Origin: a virus
DNA length: 43,636 nucleotides
Virus record (IMG/VR): IMGVR_UViG_3300027396_000050
Location: 1-43,636 of that record
Strand: one strand, 5' to 3'
The position numbers and the translations under genes are program-made. The notes below the pieces were generated by a model that did no database searches, was not told where the DNA came from, and was given only the letters and a program-made list of their open reading frames with translations. Below, one piece after another: positions 17,901 through 37,076 of this stretch (position 1 is its first letter; every line of letters starts with the position of its first letter).

Positions 17901-19703
17901 TTTTCAAGTGCGACATCTACTCTGTATGTTGGGGCATATACTGCGAGTAATGTTTCATTCAATGGTTATATCGATGAATTGAGAATTTCAAATTTTGCAA
18001 AATACACTGAAGATTTTAATTTGCCGGCACTAGCATTTTCAGAAAATATTAATCAGGAAGATATTATTCCTAGAAATTTACTTCTGTATTATGACCCGTC
18101 AAATTCATTCTCATACGATAGAAATGAGCCAGGCGTAGCATTAAATATTGTTAATGACCAGACAGAAATGTCCATCGGCGGCGGTCATAATTTTGTTCAC
18201 GCCACTTCAAATGCATTTTCATTTTCATGTTCTGAATCAGATGGCACATCAACATACGTAATTGCTGAAAATATTGATATCGAGACAACTGGCGATTTTA
18301 CTATAGAAATGTGGTTAAAATCTGATGAAAACTCAAATTGTATATATTCATATTCTTCAACTAATCTGATGCTACCTGCTACGATTTCTTCAAATGCACC
18401 AACTGGTCTACCAAATGTTTGGGATCATATTGTTCTTTCAAGAAATAGCGGCGTCGTTTCAGGATATAAAAATGCGACGTTGTGGGGTACTGGAAATGAT
18501 TTCTCCGATATTTCAAATATTCAATTTGGCTCAAGAACTATTAATTCTATTTTAGATGTTGGCCTAATGCGCGTGTATAACAGATCACTTGCGCTAGCTG
18601 AAATCACACAAAATTATAATGCACAAAAAGATAGATTTTATAAACCAGAGCTGATAATTAGATTAGAGTACGAAGAATTTCCTAATATTTTTGACACTTC
18701 TGCTTATAATTATCCTGTTAATTTAATTGGCTCAGCGACCATAACAACAACCGATTATAAAAAGGGTTTATCATCTTTTTATAATCCAGATTCATCATCT
18801 GGAATTTATTTTGAAAAAGGAATAGTTAAACCATTAGAAATCGCAGATTTCACATTTGAAACTTGGTTTAAACATGCTGGTTCCGTTGGCACACAGACAC
18901 AGTATATTTTTTGCATGACTTCAGATCCAACCAGCGCTTTAGCTGATGCTAGTGACATGTCAGTGAGCTTAGAAACTGTTAGTGGAAGTCTTAGGCCAAA
19001 ATTTTCAGTTAGAAATAATGGCGCGTTAACGTCAGTATTAAGCAGTAACTCAGCTCCACCGAACATTTGGAATAATCTTGCTGTTACACGAAGCGGAAAT
19101 ATTTTTAGGGCATTCCTAAATGGAACTGTTTTTGCAACAATTTTAGATGTTACTACGAATTTTTTAAATTCGTCATGGCACTTTGGAAATTTTTATAAGC
19201 AGGTTGGTGGTAATAGATTGGGATTAAACGGTAGACTAGATTCTACAAAATTGCTAAAAAATTCTTGTTTATATACAGGTGATTATAATGTTCCTGATTC
19301 CGAAGTTGAGCCTTTGGAGCCTTTAACTTTAGAAGGAAACTCCATAAATGATCTAGATATATTTATGTTTGACCAAGTTGGCGAAAATTCATTTTTCGCG
19401 AAATTTACTTCACCTTTAGATGTTAAGATGATAGCTTCATGGTCAGATACAACGAGCTCAAATACACCATTAACATTAATTATGCCAGACGAAATAGTGA
19501 ATAATTTAGACATCACTATGACGTCTATCCCAGCTAGTGGTGAAAATGCAGTATTGACTTTATTTTCTCCAGATAGTGTTATAACAAGCTCAATAGATGT
19601 TATGGCGTCATCTCTTCCTGCTGATGGCCAATCAGCAGTACTGACACTATTTTCACCAGAATCATCGTCGCCAAGTGAATTGCCAGTTTTCTTAACAAGA
19701 TAA
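14982..19703 (+). CDS. Giant adhesin with 21-residue repeats and about five LamG-like domains
   Basis: A 1573-aa protein. Residues 34-180 are seven tandem 21-residue repeats with the pattern F-x-K-(S/T)-E-L-x-T-F then D-Y-x-K-P-(I/V)-P; two looser copies follow near 225-265. From about 460 onward come LamG/concanavalin-like domains, each recognised by (D/N)-F-T-(I/F)-E-x-W and W-x-H-x-A-(I/V)-x-R-x-x-x-x-x-x-F-x-N-G, centred near residues 490, 660, 885, 1105 and 1290. The C-terminal 130 residues carry repeats with A-V-L-T-L-F-S-P. LamG domains bind glycans or proteins, so this is most likely a host-surface-binding tail appendage. Confidence 0.85.
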   Translation: MRPVILIWRPSKAPLWGPENFTTTDVFLDIPVTFTASEIFTFLDVDYYNQVPLNLDKNEILTFLAEDYQKPVPVSFQKSELLTFLSNDYLKPIPTSFQKSELLTFLSNDYLKPIPTSFEKTELSTFVTNDYLKPIPTSFEKTELSTFVIVDALNPLPIKLEKTELFCAIDINQTRVIPISTVKEEIFTFIADNNKKSISEFQSFDKIEIPVFLGLENLVNLPVSFNIESSDQFVSLNNFKNIPNQFNIESSDEFLSLDNLKISPIVFLKNQAGNHFIPNTTNNIIIPPVFSGQNDQFSTIFSSNDPLISADIEFDTDNQMSNSLVLHQKNTETVPASFSIPSFTVEIPPLSGPETISSTDPDLFLYKNSLHFKFEGDAGQTSITELTEKIVTSNSMQLTNATRFTNDQNNSQTKAALTRAEGAYVSVGISATAFIDRSSNTTLTAYGSPPVYDFGPFTSNLGSSVYFDGNGEYLITGYSAISITNQDTVTYEFWVHPKKTDFVYENVIFLNYYNSQNNKHYCSISAAGDSLIYSEDTSVSSTLRLTTPAGSLQNNAWSHVAIIRKPAAPYVKIFINGVLSAQTSTGTLLSANNHYFIIGGNSPTLSLRGYLSNFRVVNGVEVYTSNFVVPKRKLPVIAGTQLLALQDESKVLDLADKNFTIEGWWSPFRLSSGGALVGIWTDTTATSSWLVSQGSDPSQLAFSISDGSNVTSFEAKKDNAEHSSFSALGWYHWAIVRRNDMIQGFVNGKKISSFTGFFDGLINPPSTSLRVATISNNNKPSLGVFDDIRITRGIARYYDDFTPFRQTSVEPPILPLHLLHFDDTSSMQFIDEMQSNWTYHSVGSPASSATIVSNAAAFGSGGLSVAGGSGIKTTPNQNVLNSDFTIEAWIYPRSFNTGSVNTIISQDLTSVTGFTISITSSSATLSYHSDGNYTTATNFSANSWYHLAIQRKNSSHSFFINGKKYIPTGSGNRFSSATSTLYVGAYTASNVSFNGYIDELRISNFAKYTEDFNLPALAFSENINQEDIIPRNLLLYYDPSNSFSYDRNEPGVALNIVNDQTEMSIGGGHNFVHATSNAFSFSCSESDGTSTYVIAENIDIETTGDFTIEMWLKSDENSNCIYSYSSTNLMLPATISSNAPTGLPNVWDHIVLSRNSGVVSGYKNATLWGTGNDFSDISNIQFGSRTINSILDVGLMRVYNRSLALAEITQNYNAQKDRFYKPELIIRLEYEEFPNIFDTSAYNYPVNLIGSATITTTDYKKGLSSFYNPDSSSGIYFEKGIVKPLEIADFTFETWFKHAGSVGTQTQYIFCMTSDPTSALADASDMSVSLETVSGSLRPKFSVRNNGALTSVLSSNSAPPNIWNNLAVTRSGNIFRAFLNGTVFATILDVTTNFLNSSWHFGNFYKQVGGNRLGLNGRLDSTKLLKNSCLYTGDYNVPDSEVEPLEPLTLEGNSINDLDIFMFDQVGENSFFAKFTSPLDVKMIASWSDTTSSNTPLTLIMPDEIVNNLDITMTSIPASGENAVLTLFSPDSVITSSIDVMASSLPADGQSAVLTLFSPESSSPSELPVFLTR
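15081..15521 (+). repeat. Tandem 63-bp coding repeats (seven units)
   Basis: Seven in-frame 63-bp units encoding 21 residues each. Units 3 and 4 (15207-15332) are almost identical in DNA, and units 5 and 6 share long identical stretches; outer units are more diverged. The gradient suggests recent expansion from the centre. Confidence 0.88.
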
Positions 19704-19840: not shown

Positions 19841-20938
19841 ATGTTAGTCGACGGCCTTAATCTGGTGGAAGGTTCCACCGCAACAAATTTAGTCCTGGCC
19901 TCAGGAACTGTAAATCCTTCAAATCCTAATGTTGGCGAATTGTTTTACAGGACGGACAATCAAGCAATCGTAGTTTATAATGGTTCAGCATGGGTTGAAG
20001 TTGCTGGTGGAGGAGGTGGATCAGGCTCAGTAACTTCCATTAATGCTACCTCATCAGATATCACAGTTACTGGCGGCCCAATTACTTCATCAGGCACCTT
20101 AACATTATCTCTTAACAATTCTGGCGTGTCTGCTGGAACATATACTAAAGTCACTGTAGACGCAAAAGGCCGAGTAACTTCAGCAACAACATTATCCGCA
20201 AGCGATATTCCATCCCTGTCTGATACTTATCAACCTCTTGATGCCGATCTTACTGCAATTGGTGGATTATCTGGCTCATCAGGTATTTTAAAGAAAACAG
20301 CAGCCAATACTTGGTCTCTTGATACTAACACATATCTGACTGGCAACCAATCAATTACTGTGTCTGGTGATGCCACTGGTTCTGGTGCTACAGCAATTTC
20401 ATTGACATTGGCCAATTCTGGTGTAAACACAGGCACATACACTAAAGTTACAGTGGACGCAAAAGGCCGAGTGACAGCTGGAACCACATTAACAGCCGGA
20501 GATATTCCTACATTATCTCAATATATGTTAAAAGAAGGAGATGTAGCTACTGGCACTATGACAGTCACAAATCTCGTGCTAGGCGGCTCAGCAGAAATTA
20601 AAACTTATACGGAGACATATTTTTCTGTAGGCAGTTCAGCATCAACTACATTAGATCTTTCTTCAGGTACTACTGTTTTATTATCATTGGGCACAAGTAT
20701 TACCAACTTAAGTTTTATTAATGTTCCGCCTGCACCAAAAGTGTCAGCCTTAAATATGTTCATTGAACAAGCTGGTGGCGGAAGTAAGACAATAACTTGG
20801 CCAAATACTGTTAAATGGGGAAATGGCACTGCACCAACGCTATCAACGACTGCGACACGTGTTGATATTATTACGCTAATTACTTATAATAGTGGAACAT
20901 CTTGGTTTGGGTTTATTTCTGGATTGAATTTTTCATAA
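19841..20938 (+). CDS. Tail-fibre-type structural protein, 365 aa
   Basis: The N-terminal region carries GELFYRTDNQAIVVYNGSAW, the N-P-x-x-G-x-(L/I)-(F/Y)-(Y/F)-x-T-x-x-x-x-x-x-x-Y-x-G-x-x-W phrase common in phage fibre proteins. Two repeats of about 60 residues contain NSGV-(S/N)-(A/T)-GTYTKVTVDAKGRV and end in DIP; this GTYxKVTVDxKGRV motif is typical of phage fibre and appendage shafts. The C-terminus (FINVPPAPKVSALNMFIEQA, then NTVKWGNGTAPTLS) looks like a beta-sandwich tip. A virion appendage protein is well supported; which appendage is not. Confidence 0.85.
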   Translation: MLVDGLNLVEGSTATNLVLASGTVNPSNPNVGELFYRTDNQAIVVYNGSAWVEVAGGGGGSGSVTSINATSSDITVTGGPITSSGTLTLSLNNSGVSAGTYTKVTVDAKGRVTSATTLSASDIPSLSDTYQPLDADLTAIGGLSGSSGILKKTAANTWSLDTNTYLTGNQSITVSGDATGSGATAISLTLANSGVNTGTYTKVTVDAKGRVTAGTTLTAGDIPTLSQYMLKEGDVATGTMTVTNLVLGGSAEIKTYTETYFSVGSSASTTLDLSSGTTVLLSLGTSITNLSFINVPPAPKVSALNMFIEQAGGGSKTITWPNTVKWGNGTAPTLSTTATRVDIITLITYNSGTSWFGFISGLNFS

Positions 20939-20958
20939 TCTAATTCAGAGATAAAAAT

Positions 20959-21324
20959 ATGTTAGCGTTAAAATTAACAACTGCCGCTGCCGGGAAAATT
21001 CTGTTGGAATCAGGACTGCCTGACTTGACGCTAGAGGGAAGCGCTATATCTGATTTAGAAGTATTTGTGATTGGACAGATTGACACGAATACATTCTTAT
21101 CTGGACTAATTTCACAATTGGATGTTAGCGCAGATTCTCTACAAGCAACTGGCGTGAGTTCAGTTAAAACGTTATTTTCACCATCTGAGAATGTCGCTGA
21201 TATTATACCGCTGTCATTATCATCAATAGTAGAGTCAGGAAGCTCAGTGGTTGCGTCATTCTTCGCAACCTATGATAGTACACCAAATGAAATACAAATT
21301 TCTCTAAAATCATCATCGGCGTAA
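20959..21324 (+). CDS. Small adhesin-anchor protein, 121 aa
   Basis: The N-terminus MLALKLTTAAAGKILL is nearly identical to those of the LamG proteins at 22537 and 24837. The rest resembles the C-terminal region of the 1573-aa protein: DLTLEGSAISDLEVFVIGQI matches PLTLEGNSINDLDIFMFDQV, and S-V-K-T-L-F-S-P-S-E matches A-V-L-T-L-F-S-P-D-S. It thus joins an attachment leader to the repeat module without LamG domains. It may be a minimal subunit of the same structure or a remnant of a larger adhesin. Confidence 0.8.
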   Translation: MLALKLTTAAAGKILLESGLPDLTLEGSAISDLEVFVIGQIDTNTFLSGLISQLDVSADSLQATGVSSVKTLFSPSENVADIIPLSLSSIVESGSSVVASFFATYDSTPNEIQISLKSSSA

Positions 21325-21362
21325 TACCATGATAATTAACAAGTTATAGGAGTATATTTAAA

Positions 21363-21872
21363 ATGTCTCTTCTTTATCATCCGAATATTAAAAGAGTTTT
21401 TGCTGAAAGGGGTATTAGACTAGGTCTTTGCGGATCTATTACTGTATATTCCGGAACACAACCAACTCCTCAGACTGTAATAAACAATTGGACACAATAT
21501 AACGCGAACTCATCAGCATGCTTGTGGCACGGAACTAATACAATCTGGAGTCTTCAGAACTCTTTAGTGGTATATGCATCTACGTTGCCAAAAGCTTTTA
21601 CTCCTTACAGGGCAGGAACTGCCACATGGTGTATTTTATGGGGTATTAGTACTGTTGCTGGAACAGCTATTTCTGATGTATATTATGGAAATAATAATGG
21701 CGGGCTTCAGGCAGTTACGCCACAAATAGGTTCATCAACTATAGCCACCACAAAATTCATAATAGCGGACGTGTCAAGCAGCGCCGGAACTGGCGTAGTT
21801 CGTTTTTCTTCAGTCAATTTCACTACCGCATCAGCAATACAGCCTGTTGATATCGGTATTACTATAGCGTGA
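21363..21872 (+). CDS. Small beta-rich virion protein, 169 aa
   Basis: A Ser/Thr/Gly-rich protein starting MSLLYHPNIKRVFAERGIRL. It has SITVYSGTQPTPQTVINNW, and GTATWCILWGIS at about residues 82-93. The following gene has the equivalent phrases (ITIHSGVMPTSISTVTSF and GTATWFLLS), so the two are tandem paralogues. AGGAG lies upstream. Likely a late structural protein of the adhesin complex. Confidence 0.75.
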   Translation: MSLLYHPNIKRVFAERGIRLGLCGSITVYSGTQPTPQTVINNWTQYNANSSACLWHGTNTIWSLQNSLVVYASTLPKAFTPYRAGTATWCILWGISTVAGTAISDVYYGNNNGGLQAVTPQIGSSTIATTKFIIADVSSSAGTGVVRFSSVNFTTASAIQPVDIGITIA

Positions 21873-21881
21873 GGTGGATAA

Positions 21882-22439
21882 ATGGGAACAATATATTTAA
21901 GTCCAGCATTTGCGGCCGGCGACATATATTCAAGTGCTAAAAGAATATTTGAATTAACAACTTCAGCAGCTATTACCACAGGCACGTCTCAGGCTATATT
22001 TCAGAGGCAGATAGGTTCCGGCTCAACACTCTATCCAATTGGCAGAATAACTATCCATAGCGGTGTTATGCCAACCTCTATTTCGACCGTTACGTCATTT
22101 GCATCATACACTTCTACAGTTTTATGCACTTTCCGCAATGATAACGGTGGTGTAACCTTTGCTCCTTCAGACATATCATTTTATGGCACGCCATCAGTAA
22201 TAACGTCCGCGTATGTCACAGCAACCATGAGCGGCACTGCCACCTGGTTTTTATTATCATCAGCTGCAGCAAGTTCAAATACCTTTGACAATGGATTATT
22301 ATGGCATCAAATAGTAGGTTCTGTAGGTCCAATCGGCGGCAGTGATGACCTCGTCATTTCAAACGTGAATATAACAGCGGGCCAATTAGTAAGAATCTTT
22401 AACTTGAGATTCTCAATTCCAGCGACATATACGTTCTAA
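21882..22439 (+). CDS. Small beta-rich virion protein, 185 aa
   Basis: Paralogous to the gene just upstream: both carry (Y/I)-(S/H)-S-G-x-x-P and S-G-T-A-T-W-F blocks in the same order. Starts MGTIYLSPAFAAGDIYSSAK, with a GAGGTGG site before the ATG. Ends RFSIPATYTF. The 9-base gap and shared layout indicate an old duplication within the operon 19841-22439, which ends at the hairpin at 22463. Confidence 0.75.
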   Translation: MGTIYLSPAFAAGDIYSSAKRIFELTTSAAITTGTSQAIFQRQIGSGSTLYPIGRITIHSGVMPTSISTVTSFASYTSTVLCTFRNDNGGVTFAPSDISFYGTPSVITSAYVTATMSGTATWFLLSSAAASSNTFDNGLLWHQIVGSVGPIGGSDDLVISNVNITAGQLVRIFNLRFSIPATYTF

Positions 22440-22462
22440 GTTTTTTAATAAAAACGCGAAAT

Positions 22463-22490
22463 AAATCGGGGCATTAAACGCCCCCGATTT
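22463..22490 (+). terminator. Hairpin, probable terminator
   Basis: A 9-bp stem AAATCGGGG (22463-22471) with CCCCGATTT (22482-22490) and a 10-base loop. The stem ends one base before the late promoter GATAAATA, and there is no separate U-run, so termination may be partial. Confidence 0.6.
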
Positions 22491-22498
22491 GATAAATA
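22491..22498 (+). promoter_or_regulatory. Late promoter GATAAATA
   Basis: A NATAAATA octamer immediately after a hairpin and 38 bases before the start at 22537. Confidence 0.6.
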
Positions 22499-22536
22499 TT
22501 ACAACATATACCTATTATGCCCAAAGGATCTATAAA

Positions 22537-24693
22537 ATGCTCGCGTTAAAATTGACTACTGCTTCTTCTGGTAGAATATTACTACTAAGTTCTTACACGC
22601 CTCCAGGACCAATAGAGGTATCAACCGGCAATGAATTAACATCTTTTTCAGTATTCTTTGATGGGGAAGTTGGTACTACTGCTACGCTAAATAACACGTA
22701 TATTGATTCTTCACCAAATAATTTAACAGTAACTGCTTCTAGTAATTTGTGGGGTCAAAGTTCTTTTAGTCCATTTGGCAAACAAGGGTGGTGTGCCTCT
22801 TTTGATGGGTCCAATTCTTTAGTTTCTTTTGGCAACACACCCGTCGGCGTTAGGTATCCGCAATTCAGTTTCATGCATAATTCAACCGCAACATTCACTT
22901 ATGAGTGTTGGATTTTCAGAGAAACTAGCGTTGCTAATACATTAATAGATAATACTGATAATACTATAAACACGAATACAGGAACTCGAATTGGTATATA
23001 TGCAGCTAGCGTAAACACGACAAGTAATAAATTATACATGCAAGTAGTTGGTACTACAAACACTCTCGCGGTTGATGCACGTTCTTCATCAGAAATTGCA
23101 CTAAACACCTGGACACATATTGCAGTCACATATGATCGCTCAATTATAACCGGTACTGCAAAAATTTATATCAACGGAATTTTAGATGGAGTAGCAGACA
23201 GAGGACCGGGTAATCCTAATGATTTAGGTTCCAGGTCTCCATTATACATAGGTCTAAGCAAAGTTAACGGCTCTGGGCAGTTTCAGGGCGCAATGTCTGA
23301 TTTGAGAATTTCAAATACTGTTTTATATAACTCAAATTTCACGCCTCCGACTGCACCAGTAACTGCGTCGTCAGCAACTACTGCACTTTTAACTTTCCAG
23401 CATCAAAATAGTAGAGTTGTAGATAATAGTGTGAATAATTACACTCCTGACAACATGGTTGGTAATAGAGCAGACCAAGGCACTGGTTCTAAGTTTTCTA
23501 TTTCTCCTGGGAGTCCATATAAATTTTCATTATACACGTCTTCCACAGGCGGTTCTATGTGTTTAGCAAATGCAACTTATCTAACAGTTTCGTCTTCAAC
23601 GGCGTTAGTTTTAGGTTCAGATGATTTCACTATTGACTGTTGGGTCTATACATACACGGCCGGCGCAGATTTGCCAGAGTATGATCCACCATTATTATCT
23701 AGATTAGACACTAGAGCAAATCGTAATTTTTATATATCTTATAATAGGCGTTTAGGTTTTGGAACTTCTACAGCGCGTACGTTTGAATCATCGATAGAAG
23801 TTCCGGGTGATCAATGGACGCATGTCGCTGTTGAAAGAAGTAGCAACACCATGAGACTTTATATTAACGGCGTGATCGCCGGCACAACAACAACAAATCT
23901 TCCGGTTTTAACACAGCAAAATAATTTGATAATCGGTCGTGGTGCGGATCTATCTCGTGGAGCGATTGATGGATATATTAGCGATTTTAGAATAACCAAA
24001 GGTGTTGCGATGTTTAATGGAGCATTTACGCCTCCGACGAGCATGGCTACAGCAACTGCACAGACAAGCTTATTATTGAATTTTACAAATGGCGCCGCGA
24101 TTGATGTGACAGGTAAAAATGTGTTTAGTTTCCCTGCTACTCCATTAGGCTCAAATCAAACATTAATTGATTCTTCAGTTAAGAAAAATGGAAACGCGAG
24201 TTTGAGATTTGGCGACGGAGGCTATGCACAAGTCAAGCCGGGAAGGAGTACTATAAACTTTGGAACAGCAAATTTTACTATAGAATTTTGGGTCAACTTC
24301 AGGGCGCCGTGGGCAGCAGGCAAACGCCTAGTATCATATAACCATGCCGGCAGCGCAACAAGAACTAATAATCCACTCTTGATTCAAACGGAAACAAATA
24401 AAATCGGATTATATGCAACTTCCGATGGTTCATCATGGAATATCGCAAACAATCTTACTGTTTTTTCTGGTACGCCAACAACTAGTGTGTGGCACCATTT
24501 AGCTGTAACACGAAATGGCAACACAATAAGAACTTTTGCAAATGGAACGCTGGTGAGCAGCACGTCTACATCATTGGCACTGGTGAGAGTAACAACTCCG
24601 GTGTTAACATTTGGTTCTGCAGAATGTTATATTGATGATTTTAGAATTTATAAAGGCTACGCAAAGTACATTGACAGTTTCACGCCAGAATAA
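22537..24693 (+). CDS. LamG-domain adhesin A, 718 aa
   Basis: The start at 22537 is chosen over an in-frame codon at 22489 because AAAGGA lies 8 bases upstream and MLALKLTTASSGRILL matches two sister proteins; 22489 overlaps the late promoter. After a short leader with ELTSFSVFFDGEVGTT come three LamG-like domains centred near residues 118 (TFTYECWIF), 363 (DFTIDCWVY) and 578 (NFTIEFWVNF), each with the W-x-H-x-A-V-x-R/Y strand and an Asn-Gly turn. Probably binds host glycan or another fibre. The C-terminal domain contains a 214-bp block identical to its neighbour. Confidence 0.87.
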   Translation: MLALKLTTASSGRILLLSSYTPPGPIEVSTGNELTSFSVFFDGEVGTTATLNNTYIDSSPNNLTVTASSNLWGQSSFSPFGKQGWCASFDGSNSLVSFGNTPVGVRYPQFSFMHNSTATFTYECWIFRETSVANTLIDNTDNTINTNTGTRIGIYAASVNTTSNKLYMQVVGTTNTLAVDARSSSEIALNTWTHIAVTYDRSIITGTAKIYINGILDGVADRGPGNPNDLGSRSPLYIGLSKVNGSGQFQGAMSDLRISNTVLYNSNFTPPTAPVTASSATTALLTFQHQNSRVVDNSVNNYTPDNMVGNRADQGTGSKFSISPGSPYKFSLYTSSTGGSMCLANATYLTVSSSTALVLGSDDFTIDCWVYTYTAGADLPEYDPPLLSRLDTRANRNFYISYNRRLGFGTSTARTFESSIEVPGDQWTHVAVERSSNTMRLYINGVIAGTTTTNLPVLTQQNNLIIGRGADLSRGAIDGYISDFRITKGVAMFNGAFTPPTSMATATAQTSLLLNFTNGAAIDVTGKNVFSFPATPLGSNQTLIDSSVKKNGNASLRFGDGGYAQVKPGRSTINFGTANFTIEFWVNFRAPWAAGKRLVSYNHAGSATRTNNPLLIQTETNKIGLYATSDGSSWNIANNLTVFSGTPTTSVWHHLAVTRNGNTIRTFANGTLVSSTSTSLALVRVTTPVLTFGSAECYIDDFRIYKGYAKYIDSFTPE
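24363..24576 (+). repeat. Identical 214-bp block, copy 1
   Basis: Base-for-base identical to 26654-26867 by direct reading, while sequence just outside differs. It encodes the middle of the last LamG domain in both adhesins. Confidence 0.92.
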
Positions 24694-24723
24694 TTCATAA
24701 AATCATTTACGTTTCATAACTCA

Positions 24724-24757
24724 ATAAACGCTTCATGAATATTCATGAAGCGTTTAT
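24724..24757 (+). terminator. Long palindrome, terminator after adhesin A
   Basis: A perfect 17-bp inverted repeat with no spacer (arms 24724-24740 and 24741-24757, core GCTTCATGAAT) followed by ATTTATATT. It stands between adhesin A and the next late promoter. Confidence 0.75.
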
Positions 24758-24783
24758 ATTTATATTAAAGCTTCTCTTTTTAA

Positions 24784-24791
24784 TATAAATA
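24784..24791 (+). promoter_or_regulatory. T4-type late promoter TATAAATA
   Basis: A perfect octamer 45 bases upstream of the start at 24837 and 26 bases after a palindromic terminator. Confidence 0.75.
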
Positions 24792-24836
24792 AAAGTGTCA
24801 ATTAATAATTAACCCGCCTTTTAATAAGGGACTATA

Positions 24837-26987
24837 ATGTTAGCACTAAAATTAACTGTCGCTTCTGCCGGAAGAATACTGCTGTTGAGCGCTTATGCCC
24901 CGCCCGGCCCAATACAAGTTCCAACTGGCGATGAACTAACGTCTTTTTCATTATTCATCGACGGTGAAGTTGGCACCACGGCTACGCTAAATAACAGATT
25001 TATCGATTCTTCACCAAATAATTTAACAGTGACGGCAACTTTTGCTACTGAACAGATATCGCAGAGCGCCTTTAGTCCATTTGGCACTCATGGTTGGTGT
25101 GGACGTTTTGCTTCCGGCGCTAGTTATTTAGAATTTGGTCACGCCGTGAGTTCTAGATATCCGCACTTCGATTTTATGCATAATTCTACTGCAACATTCA
25201 CATTTGAGTGTTGGTTTTATCGGGAAACAGACACTGAGTCTAGATTAATAGAAAATACTATGAATCTGAATACTAATACTGGAACTCGTATTGGCATATA
25301 CGCAACCAGCGCGAATACAACAAGCAACAAACTATTCATGCAAGTAGTTGGTACTACAAGCACTCTTGCTGTCGATGTTCGTTCTTCGTCAGAAATTGCA
25401 CTAAATACATGGACACATGTTGCTGTCACATATGACCGCTCAATTATAACAGGCACTGCAAAAATTTATATCAACGGAATTTTAGATGGAGTAGCAGACA
25501 GAGGAGCCGGTAATGCAAATAACGTGAGCGCGCGATATCCATTGGCTGTTGGTGGTTCTGGCAATATAAGTTCAAATGGCTACACAGGCACGATCGCAGA
25601 TTTGAGAATCTCAAATGCCGTTTTATATAATTCCAATTTTACTTTGCCAACTTCACCAGTAACTGCGTCATCAGCAACTACAAAACTTTTAATTCTACAG
25701 CATCAGAATAGTAGAATCATGGACAACAGTATAAACAATTTTACATGCACGCAAGTCGCTGCCTCGTTCGCGGGTGCTATTGTGCCTGGTAGCCCATACA
25801 AATTTACAATGTACTCATCTTCAACTGGAGGGTCTGCTTACATTGACGGCCAAGCTTTAATAGTTTCATCATCAACGTCATTAGTTATAGGCGAATCCGA
25901 TTTTACGATCGATTGTTGGGTATATATGCGATTGACGAGAACCGGTTCTGGTGTATCTTTTGATCCGGCAATAGTATCAGGTTTACATTCTGGAGTTAAT
26001 CGCAATTTTTATATTTCTGGTGTTTCTGGCAGTTTAGGGTTTGGCACTTCTACAACACGAACGTTCGAAACACCAAATCAGATTCCAATTTATCAATGGA
26101 CGCATGTTGCTGTAGAAAGAAGTGGCGGCACAATGAGGCTTTATGTTAATGGGAAAACCGAAGCTACAACTTCAACAAATCTGCCTAATTTAACGCAACA
26201 GAATAATTTAGTAATTGGTGTAGGTAGAGATTTATCTACGGGAAATCTGCGTGCCCATATTAGTGATTTGCGAATTATTAATGGGCAAGCATTATTTAAT
26301 GGCGACTTTACGCCACCAACAAGCATGTCTACCGCCACTTCAGGAACAAGTCTATTATTGAATTTTACTAATGGCGCGTGGATTGACAAGACGGGTAAAA
26401 GTACGCTGTCTGTTTATGCTGCTGCTGGCGCGGTGACAGGGATTAATTCTTCGGTTTATAAAAATGGAAATGCTAGTTTAAGATTTGCAAACGGCAACTT
26501 CGCGTTCATTAGACAAGGATTAACTACTATAGACCTCAAAAAATCAGATTTTACTATAGAATTTTGGATCAACTTTGTGACGTATCTAACTGGTTCAGCA
26601 TCATCAAATAGGAAATACTTAGTGTGTTATAACAGGAACGGTGGCGCAACAATAACTAATAATCCACTCTTGATTCAAACGGAAACAAATAAAATCGGAT
26701 TATATGCAACTTCCGATGGTTCATCATGGAATATCGCAAACAATCTTACTGTTTTTTCTGGTACGCCAACAACTAGTGTGTGGCACCATTTAGCTGTAAC
26801 ACGAAATGGCAACACAATAAGAACTTTTGCAAATGGAACGCTGGTGAGCAGCACGTCTACATCATTGTCATTGTTAACGCCTGGCGCAGATACAGAAATG
26901 ACAATTGGTTCTGCAGAATGTTATATTGACGATTTTAGAATTTATAAAGGCTACGCAAAGTACACTGATAGCTTCACGCCTGAATAA
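24837..26987 (+). CDS. LamG-domain adhesin B, 716 aa, paralogue of adhesin A
   Basis: Starts MLALKLTVASAGRILLLSAY and follows the layout of adhesin A through its whole length: leader with ELTSFSLFIDGEVGTT, then three LamG-like domains (TFTFECWFY, DFTIDCWVYM, DFTIEFWINF). Both end with CYIDDFRIYKGYAKY and SFTPE. Divergence is uneven: the second domain differs most, and the third carries an identical DNA block. It has its own late promoter and a hairpin on each side. It is likely to be a second receptor-binding variant in the same structure. Confidence 0.87.
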   Translation: MLALKLTVASAGRILLLSAYAPPGPIQVPTGDELTSFSLFIDGEVGTTATLNNRFIDSSPNNLTVTATFATEQISQSAFSPFGTHGWCGRFASGASYLEFGHAVSSRYPHFDFMHNSTATFTFECWFYRETDTESRLIENTMNLNTNTGTRIGIYATSANTTSNKLFMQVVGTTSTLAVDVRSSSEIALNTWTHVAVTYDRSIITGTAKIYINGILDGVADRGAGNANNVSARYPLAVGGSGNISSNGYTGTIADLRISNAVLYNSNFTLPTSPVTASSATTKLLILQHQNSRIMDNSINNFTCTQVAASFAGAIVPGSPYKFTMYSSSTGGSAYIDGQALIVSSSTSLVIGESDFTIDCWVYMRLTRTGSGVSFDPAIVSGLHSGVNRNFYISGVSGSLGFGTSTTRTFETPNQIPIYQWTHVAVERSGGTMRLYVNGKTEATTSTNLPNLTQQNNLVIGVGRDLSTGNLRAHISDLRIINGQALFNGDFTPPTSMSTATSGTSLLLNFTNGAWIDKTGKSTLSVYAAAGAVTGINSSVYKNGNASLRFANGNFAFIRQGLTTIDLKKSDFTIEFWINFVTYLTGSASSNRKYLVCYNRNGGATITNNPLLIQTETNKIGLYATSDGSSWNIANNLTVFSGTPTTSVWHHLAVTRNGNTIRTFANGTLVSSTSTSLSLLTPGADTEMTIGSAECYIDDFRIYKGYAKYTDSFTPE
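26654..26867 (+). repeat. Identical 214-bp block, copy 2
   Basis: The partner of 24363-24576. A shorter identical stretch of about 51 bases is shared by the first LamG domains (within 23150-23210 and 25450-25510). Confidence 0.92.
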
Positions 26988-27004: not shown

Positions 27005-27040
27005 GCAACCGGGTTATTTTAAATAATCCGGTTGCACTTT
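27005..27040 (+). terminator. Terminator after adhesin B
   Basis: A 14-bp stem with one G-U pair (left 27005-27018, right 27022-27035) followed by ACTTT running straight into TATAAATA. Confidence 0.8.
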
Positions 27041-27048
27041 TATAAATA
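27041..27048 (+). promoter_or_regulatory. T4-type late promoter TATAAATA
   Basis: A perfect octamer 32 bases before the start at 27081, directly abutting the terminator. It heads the long late operon 27081-34392. Confidence 0.8.
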
Positions 27049-27080
27049 GACAATAATTCTGTTTATAAAGGCGCTATTAC

Positions 27081-29456
27081 ATGCCATTAGAAATCTTAAC
27101 TGAAGCTATTGCACATATTGAGGATTTAGCTCCAGAATCTTTTCTTGAGGTCATCCAAAATTTAGAAAAATATATTGCTACTGAAAAACTCGATGGCTTT
27201 AATTTTCGTTTTGGGCTTGATTCTGCTGGCAATTTATACACTTCTCGTGAAAGTAAAGGCCCAAAAGATAGGATTTATGATGCTGATGATTACGGAACTT
27301 CCGCCGCGCAATTAAAATTTGCGGCAGCTCATCGTGCAATCGAAGATCAAGCAAAAGTAATTAAATCAGAATTAAAGCCAGGAGAAGCAGTAGAAATAGA
27401 AGTTTTATTTGGTGAACAGCCAAATGCAATTACTTATGGTATCGACAATAAGAATCATATTTCGCTATTAAGAATGGTTCCTGGCGATATTGAAGAAGTA
27501 GATCAGAACAGACTTAAAGATATTTCAGCCGCTTTACTTGGAAAGACTTCAAAAATCAGAACCCCAATTTTGGATACCGATGATGGTAAACATCTCAAAT
27601 TTATACCAGTAGACATGACTTGGGAATTCGTGCCGGCACAAAAAATAGACAGCGCAGAATTGAAAAGCATTGACGTGTCAGCTGAAATAGAAGAAATGAA
27701 GAATTATCTAGATTCTAAAAATGAATTGATGGACATCCCAAATAGAGAAGTTCTTGGATTAAATTTAAGCTCAGTGCCAAAAGAAGAACGTGAAAAAGCA
27801 AAAGAAGAAAGAGAAAGAGTTAAAAATGAGTTATTAGACAATTTTAAATTGCCTATTAAACAGAAATTTCTATCACAGCTTATTAGTAAAATTGAACCCA
27901 AATTACAGAAAAGTACAGTAGATCCAAAAGAAAAATTTGGTATCGAAGGAATCGTGCTGTTAGATCCACAAACTCAGGATCAAGTTAAGCTGGTTGATAA
28001 AGACACATACGGCGAGATTAATTCTTTTAATTTTGCTGCGAGAAAGAAAATATCCGGGGCGGTGAAAAAGGCAGACGTTGATGCTGAAGATGAACTATCT
28101 GGCGGCATTGAAGGTAGGGCCATGATTAGAATTGCTGAACTTTTTGGCAATCCTTTACTTGCTGTCTCTATGCAGGCGAAAAGACAAATTGAAAAATTAA
28201 ATGTTGACACAGCTGAAGAAGCCGCAGCAAAAATTGCTGAGCAGACTTCAGCAAATTTCATGGATTTAAAAACAAAGATCCTTTCTGTACTAGCAGCTGC
28301 AGAAAAAGATATTAACGAAGAACTCGAAAAGTTCAAACGTGAAGCTAAAGACTATAAATTAATCCTAAAAGATGGGCGAGAAGTGAAATATACACAAGAA
28401 ATAATTAAACGCACGCTAGTTCAAATTGCGGAAACCTTATCAAAAATAAGTCAACTTGAAGGGCTAATTAATAGAGCTAAATCTAAAGAAGGTTTAGTTG
28501 CAGCAATTTATGGTGAAAAGATTAAAAAGGTTTTTGGCAAACAGCTCGAAGAAGCGGTGAAACCTCGTAAAATGAAAGTTCCGTTATTACAATTTTCTGA
28601 TAGATTAGCTGCGCTTTCACGGATTACTCCAGAACAGGCACATAACGCGTATACCGCGAATTTGTTGGCAGCCCTTCTTTTAATTGCAACAAATTCTAGA
28701 ACTGGAATTAAAGAGCTGCATGATCCTGACCATGCGAGTTTGCAAAAATTATCTCCAGAAATGAGCGATTTAAACTTTTGGGGCGCAATTGTTTTTTATC
28801 CAGACAAGAAACACGTAAAGCCATACTTAAGTGAAGAAACAGCTGCGGCGTTGTGGAAATCAGCTAAGCGTATTTTTAAAGACAGAATAAGAACAATTCA
28901 CCGCACTCTCTCAGCTGATATAAGTTATAATACTGTTAATTGGGAAGAACAATCAGATAATATGAGAGTGATCACTCTTAGGTTTGAAAATAGAACAAAG
29001 GCTATAAATATTATTCGAGCTGGAATACCTAATTTTGATTTCCTAGATCAGGCAGCGCAAAATGATGTTATTCAAAAAACATATATGTTGTTGCTAACGC
29101 ATGACCCAGCATCAAGATTATTGTCAGAATTAAGAAAAACACAGAACACAAATTTATTAGGAGCAGCTGGGGTGGAAGCTAAAAACAGTCTCATCAGAAG
29201 CGTAAACAAAATCGCTGAAGAAAACCAGGTTAAAGAAACAGCAGCCGGTGCAACTGCTGCTGGTGCTGTCGGTGGAGCAGCAGGAGCTGGAACTGGCCCA
29301 ATGGTTCATATGGCGCCAGCTGATATTCCAGCTACAACGGCTGCTTCAATCGCGAGCTATCCTAGTAAAATTTTTAATGGTGTAGCTATTATACGAAGAA
29401 AACGTAATTATCAACCTACTTCCAAATTCATGAAACCAGTTAAGGATAAAAAATGA
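27081..29456 (+). CDS. Late protein with ligase/capping-type nucleotidyltransferase domain
   Basis: A 791-aa protein. Residues about 30-320 show the ordered motifs of covalent nucleotidyltransferases: motif I TEKLDGF with K36 as the expected AMP/GMP-accepting lysine, SR-E-S-K-G at 55-60 (motif Ia-like), EIEVLFG at 105-111 (III), GIEGIVLL at 287-294 (IV) and VKLVDK at 302-307 (V). The remaining 470 residues are mostly helical with no ligase accessory domain I recognise, ending in an Ala/Gly-rich hydrophobic stretch and a basic tail (AIIRRKRNYQPTSKFMK). Late promoter and neighbours suggest a virion or late-acting enzyme rather than a replication ligase. The substrate is unknown. Confidence 0.75.
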   Translation: MPLEILTEAIAHIEDLAPESFLEVIQNLEKYIATEKLDGFNFRFGLDSAGNLYTSRESKGPKDRIYDADDYGTSAAQLKFAAAHRAIEDQAKVIKSELKPGEAVEIEVLFGEQPNAITYGIDNKNHISLLRMVPGDIEEVDQNRLKDISAALLGKTSKIRTPILDTDDGKHLKFIPVDMTWEFVPAQKIDSAELKSIDVSAEIEEMKNYLDSKNELMDIPNREVLGLNLSSVPKEEREKAKEERERVKNELLDNFKLPIKQKFLSQLISKIEPKLQKSTVDPKEKFGIEGIVLLDPQTQDQVKLVDKDTYGEINSFNFAARKKISGAVKKADVDAEDELSGGIEGRAMIRIAELFGNPLLAVSMQAKRQIEKLNVDTAEEAAAKIAEQTSANFMDLKTKILSVLAAAEKDINEELEKFKREAKDYKLILKDGREVKYTQEIIKRTLVQIAETLSKISQLEGLINRAKSKEGLVAAIYGEKIKKVFGKQLEEAVKPRKMKVPLLQFSDRLAALSRITPEQAHNAYTANLLAALLLIATNSRTGIKELHDPDHASLQKLSPEMSDLNFWGAIVFYPDKKHVKPYLSEETAAALWKSAKRIFKDRIRTIHRTLSADISYNTVNWEEQSDNMRVITLRFENRTKAINIIRAGIPNFDFLDQAAQNDVIQKTYMLLLTHDPASRLLSELRKTQNTNLLGAAGVEAKNSLIRSVNKIAEENQVKETAAGATAAGAVGGAAGAGTGPMVHMAPADIPATTAASIASYPSKIFNGVAIIRRKRNYQPTSKFMKPVKDKK

Positions 29457-30892
29457 CTCAAAAAAATGATAAGCCATTGAGCGAAACTGCCGCTGCTGGC
29501 ACACAACCAAAATTGAATCTTTCCCTTTTGAGCCAAGTAGATAACGCTCAGGCCGCCAAAAAAGCAGGGCATGAATTGTCAACCAATGACGTTCATGAAA
29601 TTTTATCTGCCGCACATGAAGCTGAGGAAGAAGTTGAAACTGAAGCGTTCGGTCTAGAAACAGACGAAGGCGACATCGTAAAAGTTTATGTGAACATAAA
29701 AGATAGCGACGGTTTTGAAAAAGCTCTTGCTGATATGTTAGGAACTGAAGATGATATTGAAACTGCGCTGGAAAAACTCTCAAAATCATTTGATATCGTA
29801 GACGTGGAATGGCCAGATATGGAAGAAGAGGAAGAAGAGGAAGAAGAGGAAGAAGAATGCGAAGAGTGTGAAGGCGAAGGCTGCGAAAAATGCGAACCAG
29901 AATCAGAAGATGATTCTGAGGCAGAATTAGAATTAAGTCCAGAAGATTTAGAAAAGGCAGCTGAAAAAGAGGAAGAGGAAGAAGAGGAGGAAGAAAAAAT
30001 GAAACAAGAAGAAATAAAAACATCATCATTTGGACAGAAATTTGCTCAGCGTCTAATGGCATCTTTTGGCGATACCATTACTAGTAAGTCATTAACTGAG
30101 GCCGTAGAGAAAAAAGAACTTCTTTTTGATTTATCAGACGAACAAAAAGATCTTGAGCGTAAATTCCAAGTACCTATGCAGCGCAAGATTGTTCAAACAA
30201 TCATGTTAATGGGTTTCCCGGTTTCTCAATTGAAGCTCAAAATTTCAGCATTCCGCGATAGCGTAGAAGCTGCACACGATCTTTTATTAGACAATCCACA
30301 AGCTTTACGCTATTTTAAAGAACTCCATAAAACTTTAGGCCAAATGGTTGGCGCAAAAGAAAGCAAAAATGTTGAAGTGATGGAAGCAGAAAAAGAAGCC
30401 CACTTCTCTTCAATTTATCAACAGAAAATTTATGATCTGTACAAAGTGCTTGGTGTGCCAGAAGAATTATTAGGACAACAAAAGAAGACACGTTTTATCG
30501 AGCAGCTAAAAGATATGGCAATTTTAGTTATGTCTTCACCAGAACTTCGTCGTATAATTAACAACTTAGAAAAAGCACTCGGCAAAGAAGAAAAAGAACT
30601 TAGTCTAAAAATGAAATCAACAGATCGGCCAGTTGGTGAAAAAATAATGGCAGAAGAAATGTTAGCAGTTGATGCTTTAGGAAACTCACCATTTGCTCAA
30701 GCTCTAGTTAATCTCTTCAACGCGTTGGAATTAAGTGATTCAATTAACAAACAAGACGTACTTCAGAAATTGAAAAAACAAATCAGAGACGATAGGATGG
30801 AATTAAAAGGAATGTCAATGATTGTAACTAAGCTTAATTCTGTTGTTGATTTAATTAACAAGGGCAAATCAAAACCTGAAGGCGCCGAATAA
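29453..30892 (+). CDS. Acidic late protein with poly-Glu and CxxC cluster
   Basis: A 479-aa protein overlapping the previous gene by 4 bases. Residues about 1-120 contain DIVKVYVNIKDSDGFEKALA. A Glu-rich stretch follows with a run of about 12 Glu, then C-E-E-C and C-E-K-C pairs close together, and a second Glu run near 175. From about 190 on it is helical and moderately charged (SFGQKFAQRLMASFGD, then LSDEQKDLERKFQVP). The acidic character recalls phage prohead-core or scaffold proteins, but I see no motif to prove it. The CxxC pairs could bind zinc. Confidence 0.75.
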   Translation: MTQKNDKPLSETAAAGTQPKLNLSLLSQVDNAQAAKKAGHELSTNDVHEILSAAHEAEEEVETEAFGLETDEGDIVKVYVNIKDSDGFEKALADMLGTEDDIETALEKLSKSFDIVDVEWPDMEEEEEEEEEEEECEECEGEGCEKCEPESEDDSEAELELSPEDLEKAAEKEEEEEEEEEKMKQEEIKTSSFGQKFAQRLMASFGDTITSKSLTEAVEKKELLFDLSDEQKDLERKFQVPMQRKIVQTIMLMGFPVSQLKLKISAFRDSVEAAHDLLLDNPQALRYFKELHKTLGQMVGAKESKNVEVMEAEKEAHFSSIYQQKIYDLYKVLGVPEELLGQQKKTRFIEQLKDMAILVMSSPELRRIINNLEKALGKEEKELSLKMKSTDRPVGEKIMAEEMLAVDALGNSPFAQALVNLFNALELSDSINKQDVLQKLKKQIRDDRMELKGMSMIVTKLNSVVDLINKGKSKPEGAE

Positions 30893-30917: not shown

Positions 30918-31214
30918 ATGGACAAATCAGTTAAATCACTTTTACAGCAAATTAACGAAGCTGCCCGCGTCTTTAAAAGGCGCGGGCAGGAAATTAAACG
31001 CGCATTTGTCTGTGCAGGTGGACCGCGCAAAGGAAAGTCTGTAAGCAAATTGACTGCCTGTTTTAAAAAGCGTAAACCATTAAAAACCCGTTTAAAATTG
31101 CGCCGGGCTGCTCGGAGAACTAAAGCTCAACGCGCAGTTAAGACAAAATTAGGCTTAAGAAAAGCTACGCATTTTAAATTGGTTCGGCTGAATAAGGCAA
31201 TTAGAAAAAGATGA
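30918..31214 (+). CDS. Small very basic virion-type protein, 98 aa
   Basis: Almost a third of the residues are Lys or Arg. The motif VCAGGPRKGKSVSKLTACF at about 31-49, followed by repeated K/R-rich segments (KTRLKLRRAARRTKAQR) and ending VRLNKAIRKR, resembles from memory small basic proteins with C-x-x-GPRKG-x-x-V in T4-like environmental phages. It likely binds nucleic acid, possibly packaged DNA. It sits right after the acidic protein, which could act as a charge partner. AAGGA precedes the start. Confidence 0.75.
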   Translation: MDKSVKSLLQQINEAARVFKRRGQEIKRAFVCAGGPRKGKSVSKLTACFKKRKPLKTRLKLRRAARRTKAQRAVKTKLGLRKATHFKLVRLNKAIRKR

Positions 31215-35950: not shown

Positions 35951-36244
35951 TTAATTTATAAAAACTGTAGGTGAACCCTTTTGCACTTTACCAACATGGC
36001 ATGATCTGGAACAATGTTGTTCAGCTGCGTCGCCGACCCTCGTGGCTGCTCGATTGTTTATAAAAACATTAGATGAACCTTCGACCAATTTAACACTTCT
36101 CCAAAAATCGCGGCCGCTCGAATGACTGGTAGTAATATCATTTTCTCGAGCGAGTGGAAGCCCATCAGCATAAACGTCTGCTGAACCAGTTTTTATAAAA
36201 TCGCCACAAGATAATCTATCTGATATTCTACCGGCTGCTGGCAT
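35951..36244 (-). CDS. PAAR-domain spike-tip protein
   Basis: A 97-aa protein with the PAAR pattern: GSADVYADGLPLARENDIT, then GSSNVFINNRAATRVGDAAE, H-C and C-H near residues 81-87 as likely zinc ligands, and GSPTVFIN at the end. Starts MPAAGRISD, as PAAR proteins often do. It caps the central spike of contractile tails and sharpens it for puncturing the host outer membrane, so it supports a myovirus. The ATG follows a GAGAA-type weak site. First gene of a minus-strand late unit with 35073-35948. Confidence 0.9.
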   Translation of the reverse strand: MPAAGRISDRLSCGDFIKTGSADVYADGLPLARENDITTSHSSGRDFWRSVKLVEGSSNVFINNRAATRVGDAAEQHCSRSCHVGKVQKGSPTVFIN

Positions 36245-36317: not shown

Positions 36318-37076
36318 ATGACAAAATTATTTGAATTTGGTAAACAAGAATATGATTTGGGGATTGTTTTAGATTCTGGAAATCAAGAACACCCATGCAC
36401 GCTTTCGTTATACGCATTTAAATATTTTGTTACAATCAAATTGCCAAGGTTGATTTGGCCTGCCAAAGCACGTCGTGATTACACTTCAATAGATGGAAAA
36501 CGAACAACATATTTTGATTTTCACAACCGGGTATTTGGCTTTGTAGTTTATGAAGAAAATGTTCACGCATATTATGGTAAAAGATCATTTGATTCATGGC
36601 TTGATTCAAAAGTTAAACTGTTTGGGATTCCATGGAGGCAAACGCGAAGAGTCAGATATGATTTTTATACGCCAAATCAAGAACATTTTTGTTCCATTAA
36701 TAGTGAATTAAAGTTTGACGATGAATATTCTGCAATCAAAGAAGCCGAGAAAAAAGTTCCAAAGTTAGTAATATCATTTGATGATTTTGATGGTGAGAAA
36801 ATCATAGCGTGTTGTTATATTGAAGAGATGGAATGGCGAAAAGGCACGGGTCTTTTTAAATGGGTGAACTATATCACTAAACCAATAATTGCGCGATCAC
36901 TCGTGTACGTATTTAATAAAGAAGTTGGAAGAACAAAGAATAGTTGGAAAGGTGGGATTGTTTCTAGTTCAATTAGAATAAAAGAAGGTGATAACATTCT
37001 TGAAGTTTTTGAAAATCATCTCAAAAATGGTAAAGTATTTAAAATTGAGTCACCAAACTGCAAAATACTAGGTTAA
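36318..37076 (+). CDS. Hypothetical protein, 252 aa
   Basis: The only plus-strand gene between two minus-strand late units. It starts MTKLFEFGKQEYDLGIVLD after GGCGGAG and contains a tryptophan/tyrosine-rich middle (DFHNRVFGFVVYEENVHAYYG, given as two parts FGFVVYEENV and HAYYGKRSF), then SWLDSKVKLFGIPWRQTRRV. No catalytic motif is recognised. Its sigma70-like promoter suggests early or middle expression, unlike its neighbours. Its TAA overlaps the stop of the opposing lysin gene by 4 bases. Confidence 0.78.
   Translation: MTKLFEFGKQEYDLGIVLDSGNQEHPCTLSLYAFKYFVTIKLPRLIWPAKARRDYTSIDGKRTTYFDFHNRVFGFVVYEENVHAYYGKRSFDSWLDSKVKLFGIPWRQTRRVRYDFYTPNQEHFCSINSELKFDDEYSAIKEAEKKVPKLVISFDDFDGEKIIACCYIEEMEWRKGTGLFKWVNYITKPIIARSLVYVFNKEVGRTKNSWKGGIVSSSIRIKEGDNILEVFENHLKNGKVFKIESPNCKILG

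What the first reader, a model, noticed from the sequence alone, without database searches (positions are those of the whole stretch)
27081..29456. Late 791-aa protein with a complete set of ligase/capping nucleotidyltransferase motifs
Seen: TEKLDGF (K36), SR-x-x-K-G, EIEVLFG, GIEGIVLL and VKLVDK occur in the canonical order and plausible spacing. Known: these are motifs I, Ia, III, IV and V of DNA ligases, RNA ligases and mRNA capping enzymes. Unusual: it is the first gene after a perfect late promoter, amid virion-type genes, with a 470-residue helical extension that is no known ligase accessory domain. Inference: a ligase-fold enzyme may be packaged or act during packaging, or modify RNA or protein rather than seal replication nicks.
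Basis: partly seen in the sequence, partly recalled or inferred. Interest (0 to 1): 0.75.

Follow-up and report, generated by a model that had tools for sequence, protein, structure and literature searches.

The report
Phage RNA-ligase-like enzyme tagged for packaging
A giant-phage gene encodes an enzyme shaped like an RNA ligase that carries, at both ends, cut-off tags like those that phage T4 uses to load proteins into its head, so the virus probably packs a nucleic-acid-joining enzyme inside its own particle; this is a prediction from sequence and has not been tested in virions.

Summary
The 791-aa ORF is real, starts a transcription unit, and has the covalent nucleotidyltransferase (ligase) fold. 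K36, R56 and E107 are identical in 49/49 relatives, E289 and K303 in every row that covers them (48). AlphaFold2 (pLDDT 91) and Foldseek point to tRNA/RNA ligases. No OB domain follows motif V, so it resembles RNA ligases more than DNA ligases or capping enzymes. It is a diverged family beside Pfam RNA_ligase and DUF6267 of T4-like cyanophages. A near-identical contig carries a second, ordinary Rnl2-like ligase.

New here: 22 of 22 relatives with a recognisable N-terminal leader end it in [L/I/M]-x-E|[G/A/S], the T4 prohead-protease motif, directly before the ligase domain. Relatives without a leader start at that same point. A second such site precedes a disordered, basic C-terminal tail. T4 Alt, a packaged and injected enzyme, is cut at both ends in this way. 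Seven larger relative genomes encode a gp21-type protease and a gp23-type capsid protein. The next two window genes also begin with such sites.

Best reading: an inner-head, RNA-ligase-like enzyme. Packaging is strongly suggested but unproven: no proteome of a leader-bearing phage was available, and the leaderless PA5oct orthologue carries no mass-spectrometry note.

The parts
27005..27035 (+). terminator-like hairpin (GCAACCGG...CCGGTTGC, then ACTTTT) closing the preceding unit
   Evidence: sequence read directly
27041..27048 (+). T4-type late promoter -10 box TATAAATA
   Evidence: 9 in window vs 4.0 expected
27067..27071 (+). ribosome-binding site AAAGG, 9 nt before the ATG
27081..27104 (+). 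N-terminal leader MPLEILTE, predicted capsid-targeting propeptide cut after E8 (L-T-E|A)
   Evidence: 22/22 recognisable leaders end [LIM]xE|[GAS]; leaderless relatives start at the same point; residues 1-8 disordered in the models
27105..28058 (+). ligase-fold nucleotidyltransferase domain (residues 9-326) with K36, R56, E107, E289, K303
   Evidence: Pfam RNA_ligase, AF2 pLDDT 91.4, Foldseek, invariance
28059..28541 (+). first helical region (about residues 327-487), shared with most relatives
28587..29168 (+). second helical domain (residues 503-696), long members only; weakly similar to a separate downstream gene of Phosso and Atu_ph07
   Evidence: hhalign E 0.0014, probability 17.5
29220..29453 (+). 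C-terminal tail after I-A-E-713, Gly/Ala/Thr-rich then basic; predicted second propeptide
   Evidence: site present in the long relatives; disordered in the model; T4 Alt precedent
29453..30892 (+). next gene, 479 aa, acidic, N-terminus MTQKNDKPLSE|T; fused in frame to the ligase in 9 relative loci; candidate head-core protein
30918..31214 (+). 98-aa very basic protein, N-terminus MDKSVKSLLQQINE|A; candidate inner-head DNA-binding protein

Best explanation
The gene encodes a diverged, probably catalytically active RNA-ligase-fold nucleotidyltransferase (lysyl-AMP chemistry at K36 expected) made late in infection. A short N-terminal capsid-targeting leader, and a similar C-terminal signal, recruit it into the prohead core; the T4-gp21-type protease then removes both ends (after E8 and E713), leaving about 705 residues inside the head. 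Inferred beyond this: it is ejected with the DNA, like T4 Alt, and seals RNA (most likely cleaved tRNA) or DNA ends before phage genes are expressed. Shown here: fold, invariant catalytic residues, conserved cleavage-type sites, gp21/gp23 in larger relatives. Inferred: cleavage, packaging, ejection, substrate.
For: Fold: AF2 pLDDT 91.4, pTM 0.86; best Foldseek matches are Trl1 tRNA ligase (1.6e-4) and ASFV ligase (4.0e-4), with capping enzymes, RNA-editing ligase and DNA ligases below. 34 of 39 members match Pfam RNA_ligase, best 1.2e-6; an orthologue passes its cut-off (28.1 vs 27 bits, G002). Catalytic residues invariant. Leaders: P3 L16/I5/M1, P1 always E, P1' G20/A1/S1, P2 twelve different residues; this motif occurs at 0.0013 per position elsewhere in the family; leaderless relatives start M-[SG]-I-x-H, the same N-terminus cleavage would give. 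The C-terminal [hydrophobic]-x-E|[D/E] site parallels T4 Alt, cut at ITE-6 and LTE-619 with 63 residues lost (PMC5694885); T4 motif L/I-x-E (PMC9026906). gp21 and gp23 in seven larger relatives. Nine loci fuse the ligase in frame to the acidic gene, with a similar LLKxI[NS]E site at the junction. Separate ligases elsewhere. Six leaderless relatives have a Pol-beta-type nucleotidyltransferase next door with conserved Asp residues, as expected for RNA repair (RlaP, PMC7824862).
Against: No virion proteome of a leader-bearing phage is available. PA5oct gp256 carries no MS note although several neighbours do, but it lacks the leader. Eight members inside the leader clade have lost the leader, so it is not essential everywhere. 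The motif alone is weakly specific: strict N-terminal rate in G003 is 38/383 vs 16/383 in a control stretch, and in G001 it is 5 vs 8. No gp21 gene is on the window fragment or its 101-kb twin. The Pol-beta gene is not adjacent in long-form genomes. Substrate is inferred only; Foldseek TM-scores are low.
Confidence: 0.6

Rival explanations
1. It is an ordinary cytoplasmic RNA ligase of a jumbo phage, expressed late and never packaged; the end motifs have some other cause.
For: RNA ligases are common in jumbo phages; no MS note for PA5oct gp256; some relatives lack the leader.
Against: Leader site conserved with an otherwise variable sequence, disordered ends, in-frame fusion to an acidic core-like protein, late promoter; an ordinary Rnl2-like ligase exists elsewhere in the twin contig.
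Confidence: 0.2
2. The ligase fold has been recruited as a structural or scaffold component of the prohead core and no longer ligates.
For: Fusion to the acidic neighbour; long helical and disordered additions.
Against: All ligase catalytic residues are invariant across very diverged relatives, unexpected for a purely structural role.
Confidence: 0.12
3. It is a tail-fibre attachment factor like T4 gp63 (Rnl1), since tail-fibre-like genes lie upstream.
For: Fibre-like genes at 19841-26987; T4 gp63 is both RNA ligase 1 and a tail-fibre attachment factor (cited in PMC3400036).
Against: Fibre adjacency is not conserved; helicase or small genes lie upstream in other relatives, and such a catalyst needs no head-protease sites.
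Confidence: 0.03
4. It adds AMP or GMP to RNA ends or proteins (capping- or AMPylation-like) rather than ligating.
For: Shared covalent nucleotidyltransferase core; capping enzymes among Foldseek matches.
Against: No OB domain after motif V; Pfam similarity is to RNA ligases.
Confidence: 0.08

Closest known systems
T4 Alt (packaged, injected ADP-ribosyltransferase)
   Same: Late enzyme with L/I-x-E sites near both ends; short N-terminal leader and a C-terminal propeptide (PMC5694885)
   Different: Different chemistry and fold; Alt is shown to be packaged and cut, this is not
T4 RNA ligase 2 / Pfam RNA_ligase PF09414
   Same: Fold, motifs I to V, no OB domain seen
   Different: Weak sequence match (E 0.004 full length, 0.0005 for the domain), large insert before motif IV, head-targeting-like ends, large helical C-terminus
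DUF6267 (PF19782) of T4-like cyanophages
   Same: Collinear over about 250-263 columns (hhalign E 1e-8 to 2e-6), H-x-E-x-x-E/D start, KxDG, EG[YF]V, K-L-V-[DN]-R...N end
   Different: Short; the P-SSM2 and S-SKS1 members start directly at the domain; motif III differs (QGD instead of E)
PA5oct gp256, Sinorhizobium phage Phosso 446, Agrobacterium phage Atu_ph07 gp066
   Same: Orthologues next to the primase/helicase genes
   Different: 340-446 aa, no leader site, no disordered tail
T4 gp63 (Rnl1, tail-fibre attachment)
   Same: A ligase with a morphogenesis role
   Different: Not conserved next to fibre genes; different family

Membership tests
RNA_ligase PF09414 / Rnl2-like | profile match above the gathering score | tested here: not met
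   window protein 17.7 bits (20.6 for the domain) vs 27; orthologue in G002 28.1 bits passes
RNA_ligase PF09414 / Rnl2-like | motifs I KxDG, Ia R, III E, IV EG, V K | tested here: met
   invariant
RNA_ligase PF09414 / Rnl2-like | ligase fold without OB domain | tested here: met
   AF2 models and Foldseek
RNA_ligase PF09414 / Rnl2-like | RNA ligation activity | not testable with these tools
   needs biochemistry
ATP-dependent DNA ligase PF01068 | profile match and OB domain with motif VI | tested here: not met
   no hit at E<=1; helices only after motif V
mRNA capping enzyme | OB domain with motif VI | tested here: not met
   not in the models
DUF6267 PF19782 | profile match above cut-off | tested here: not met
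   none for the window protein; 9 of 39 relatives match weakly, best 0.0012
T4-type internal head proteins | short N-terminal leader ending L/I-x-E | tested here: met
   ILTE-8; conserved in 22/22 recognisable leaders
T4-type internal head proteins | gp21-type protease in the same phage | tested here: inconclusive
   in seven larger relatives; window and its 101-kb twin are fragments
T4-type internal head proteins | presence in virion, cut form | not testable with these tools
   no proteome of a leader-bearing phage; leaderless PA5oct orthologue has no MS note

The most novel reading that the evidence does not exclude
A widespread group of T4-like jumbo phages carries a nucleic-acid ligase inside the head and injects it, so that RNA (or genome-end) repair can act from the first moment of infection; the ligase is matured by the prohead protease, in some phages out of a polyprotein with an acidic core protein.
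Probability: 0.4. Interest if true: 0.8.

Novelty: new variant of a known kind. Interest (0 to 1): 0.6.

Why it matters
T4 packages and injects proteins such as Alt and IPI; I found no report of a packaged nucleic-acid ligase in my limited search of the open papers. If true, phages would bring repair capacity into the cell before gene expression, when host RNases and nucleases attack first. The paired end sites also give a simple, testable rule for finding other packaged enzymes among the many unknown jumbo-phage proteins.

Tried and rejected
Direct sequence searches against solved structures gave only chance hits. An HMM of the C-terminal tail found no unrelated proteins with the same tail in G001-G003, so it is not a general tag there. 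PHROGs: no significant family for the window protein; RNA ligase phrog_548 is weak, best 7e-4 in relatives. DNA-ligase and capping membership rejected for lack of an OB domain. Tail-fibre attachment rejected because fibre adjacency is not conserved. Homology of the second helical domain to Phosso 448 / Atu_ph07 gp064 is only suggestive. The leader motif is not proof by itself: its N-terminal enrichment in G003 is 2.5-fold (p 0.001), it is absent in G001, and some hits are fibre proteins with LVEGS. L180/L181 were left out of the leader count because their start codon is uncertain; L206-L209, L211, L017 and PA5oct have N-terminal extensions without the site.

Full report
Observation. ORF 27081-29456 encodes 791 aa. 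It follows a terminator-like hairpin and a T4-type late promoter, with a good ribosome-binding site. The window is a 43.6-kb virus fragment. A near-identical 101-kb IMG/VR contig (L001 = G001) and an 83%-identical one (L002) carry the same gene.

Family. tblastn against phages gives PA5oct-group gp256 and Phosso 446, and from the latter Atu_ph07 gp066; the annotated members lie next to primase and DnaB helicase genes. Profile-guided scans added 16 and then 53 viral loci. Across 49 aligned rows K36, D38, G39, R56, E107, P114 and N115 never vary, and E289, G290 and K303 never vary where covered. Pfam RNA_ligase is matched by 34 of 39 members. The ligase domain model has pLDDT 91.4 and pTM 0.86; Foldseek ranks tRNA ligase Trl1, ASFV DNA ligase, capping enzymes, RNA-editing ligase and DNA ligases. 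TM-scores are low, so this is a diverged member of the superfamily. After motif V the models are helical, with no OB fold. Profile comparison links it to DUF6267 of cyanophages: E 1.1e-8 over 263 columns with the 15-sequence set, 1.7e-6 over 250 with the 39-sequence set; an unrelated profile gave 0.089. DUF6267 is very common in marine phages (533 loci before the cap).

Not the general ligase. G001 carries a separate Rnl2-like ligase (PF09414 E 1e-26); G003 carries a DNA ligase and two RNA ligases; G002 and G004 carry DNA and RNA ligases.

Ends. Of the relatives with an N-terminal extension and a clear start, 22 end it in [LIM]-x-E followed by G, A or S and then I-x-H; a few others (L206-L209, L211, L017, PA5oct) have an extension without the site. 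P2 is almost free. Leaderless relatives begin M-S-I-x-H or M-G-I-x-H, so cutting would give the same mature start. The motif rate elsewhere in these proteins is 0.0013 per position. The tree fits one gain and three losses of the leader. At the other end the long members have [hydrophobic]-x-E|[D/E] followed by a Gly/Ala/Ser/Thr-rich stretch and a basic end. Residues 1-8 and 697-791 are disordered in the model. T4 gp21 cuts after L/I-x-E (PMC9026906), and T4 Alt is cut at ITE-6 and LTE-619 (PMC5694885). Seven larger relative genomes encode gp21-type (Peptidase_S77) and gp23-type proteins.

Neighbours. In nine loci the ligase is fused in frame to the protein that is the next gene in the window, with a similar LLKxI[NS]E site at the junction. 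In the window the next two genes begin MTQKNDKPLSE|T and MDKSVKSLLQQINE|A; the second is very basic. In leaderless relatives (Phosso, Atu_ph07, L017, L018, L019, L021) a Pol-beta-type nucleotidyltransferase follows directly. Pol-beta enzymes of the RlaP kind work with RNA ligases in RNA repair (PMC7824862). That this one is RlaP was not tested.

Mechanism, with confidence in each step: ligase fold 0.97; active nucleotidyltransferase 0.85; targeted to and cut in the prohead 0.75; RNA substrate 0.6; ejected and acting early 0.4. Steps after the fold and the conserved sites are inference.

Limits. No virion data exist here for a leader-bearing phage. PA5oct gp256, which lacks the leader site, has no MS note while several neighbours do; that fits the model but is also what an unpackaged enzyme would show. 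The 131-protein Atu_ph07 virion list could not be read.

Noticed in passing
L006:17594-28702 (Atu_ph07 gp063-gp053): Tandem paralogues whose sequences look like R-S-E ADP-ribosyltransferases (LYRG, NSIFCTG, EIMITG read by eye), most starting M[KR]W-x-QL[TN]E|x, a T4-like capsid-targeting leader; the last is fused to a P-loop kinase-like domain. Candidate cluster of Alt-like packaged enzymes.
   Followed up: partly
L005:11199-12059, L006:16013-16846, L017:11522-12373, L018:11309-12190, L019:11145-12050, L021:11175-12080: Pol-beta-type nucleotidyltransferase (GSxGKx4SGDxD ... VQxD) directly downstream of leaderless ligase homologues; no Pfam or PDB sequence match.
   Followed up: partly
G003:37449-37571, G005:451487-451666, G006:278788-278985, W02:182280-182546, G004:370118-370252: Short ORFs away from the capsid gene match only the N-terminal part of the Gp23 profile; purpose unknown.
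   Followed up: no
L062:5026-6805 (S-PM2 p141/p142): A DUF6267 ligase-like protein is split over two frames, the second also carrying a cytidylyltransferase-like (NPPTTGH) domain.
   Followed up: no
window 14982-19703, 22489-24693, 24837-26987: Large virion-type proteins with repeated concanavalin/laminin-G domains.
   Followed up: no
window 35951-36244 and 37073-38767 (-): PAAR-like protein beside an M23 peptidase plus SLT-like protein, probably tail tip and cell-wall-cutting parts.
   Followed up: no
G001:83019-83543 (-): Second, ordinary Rnl2-like RNA ligase in the near-identical contig.
   Followed up: partly
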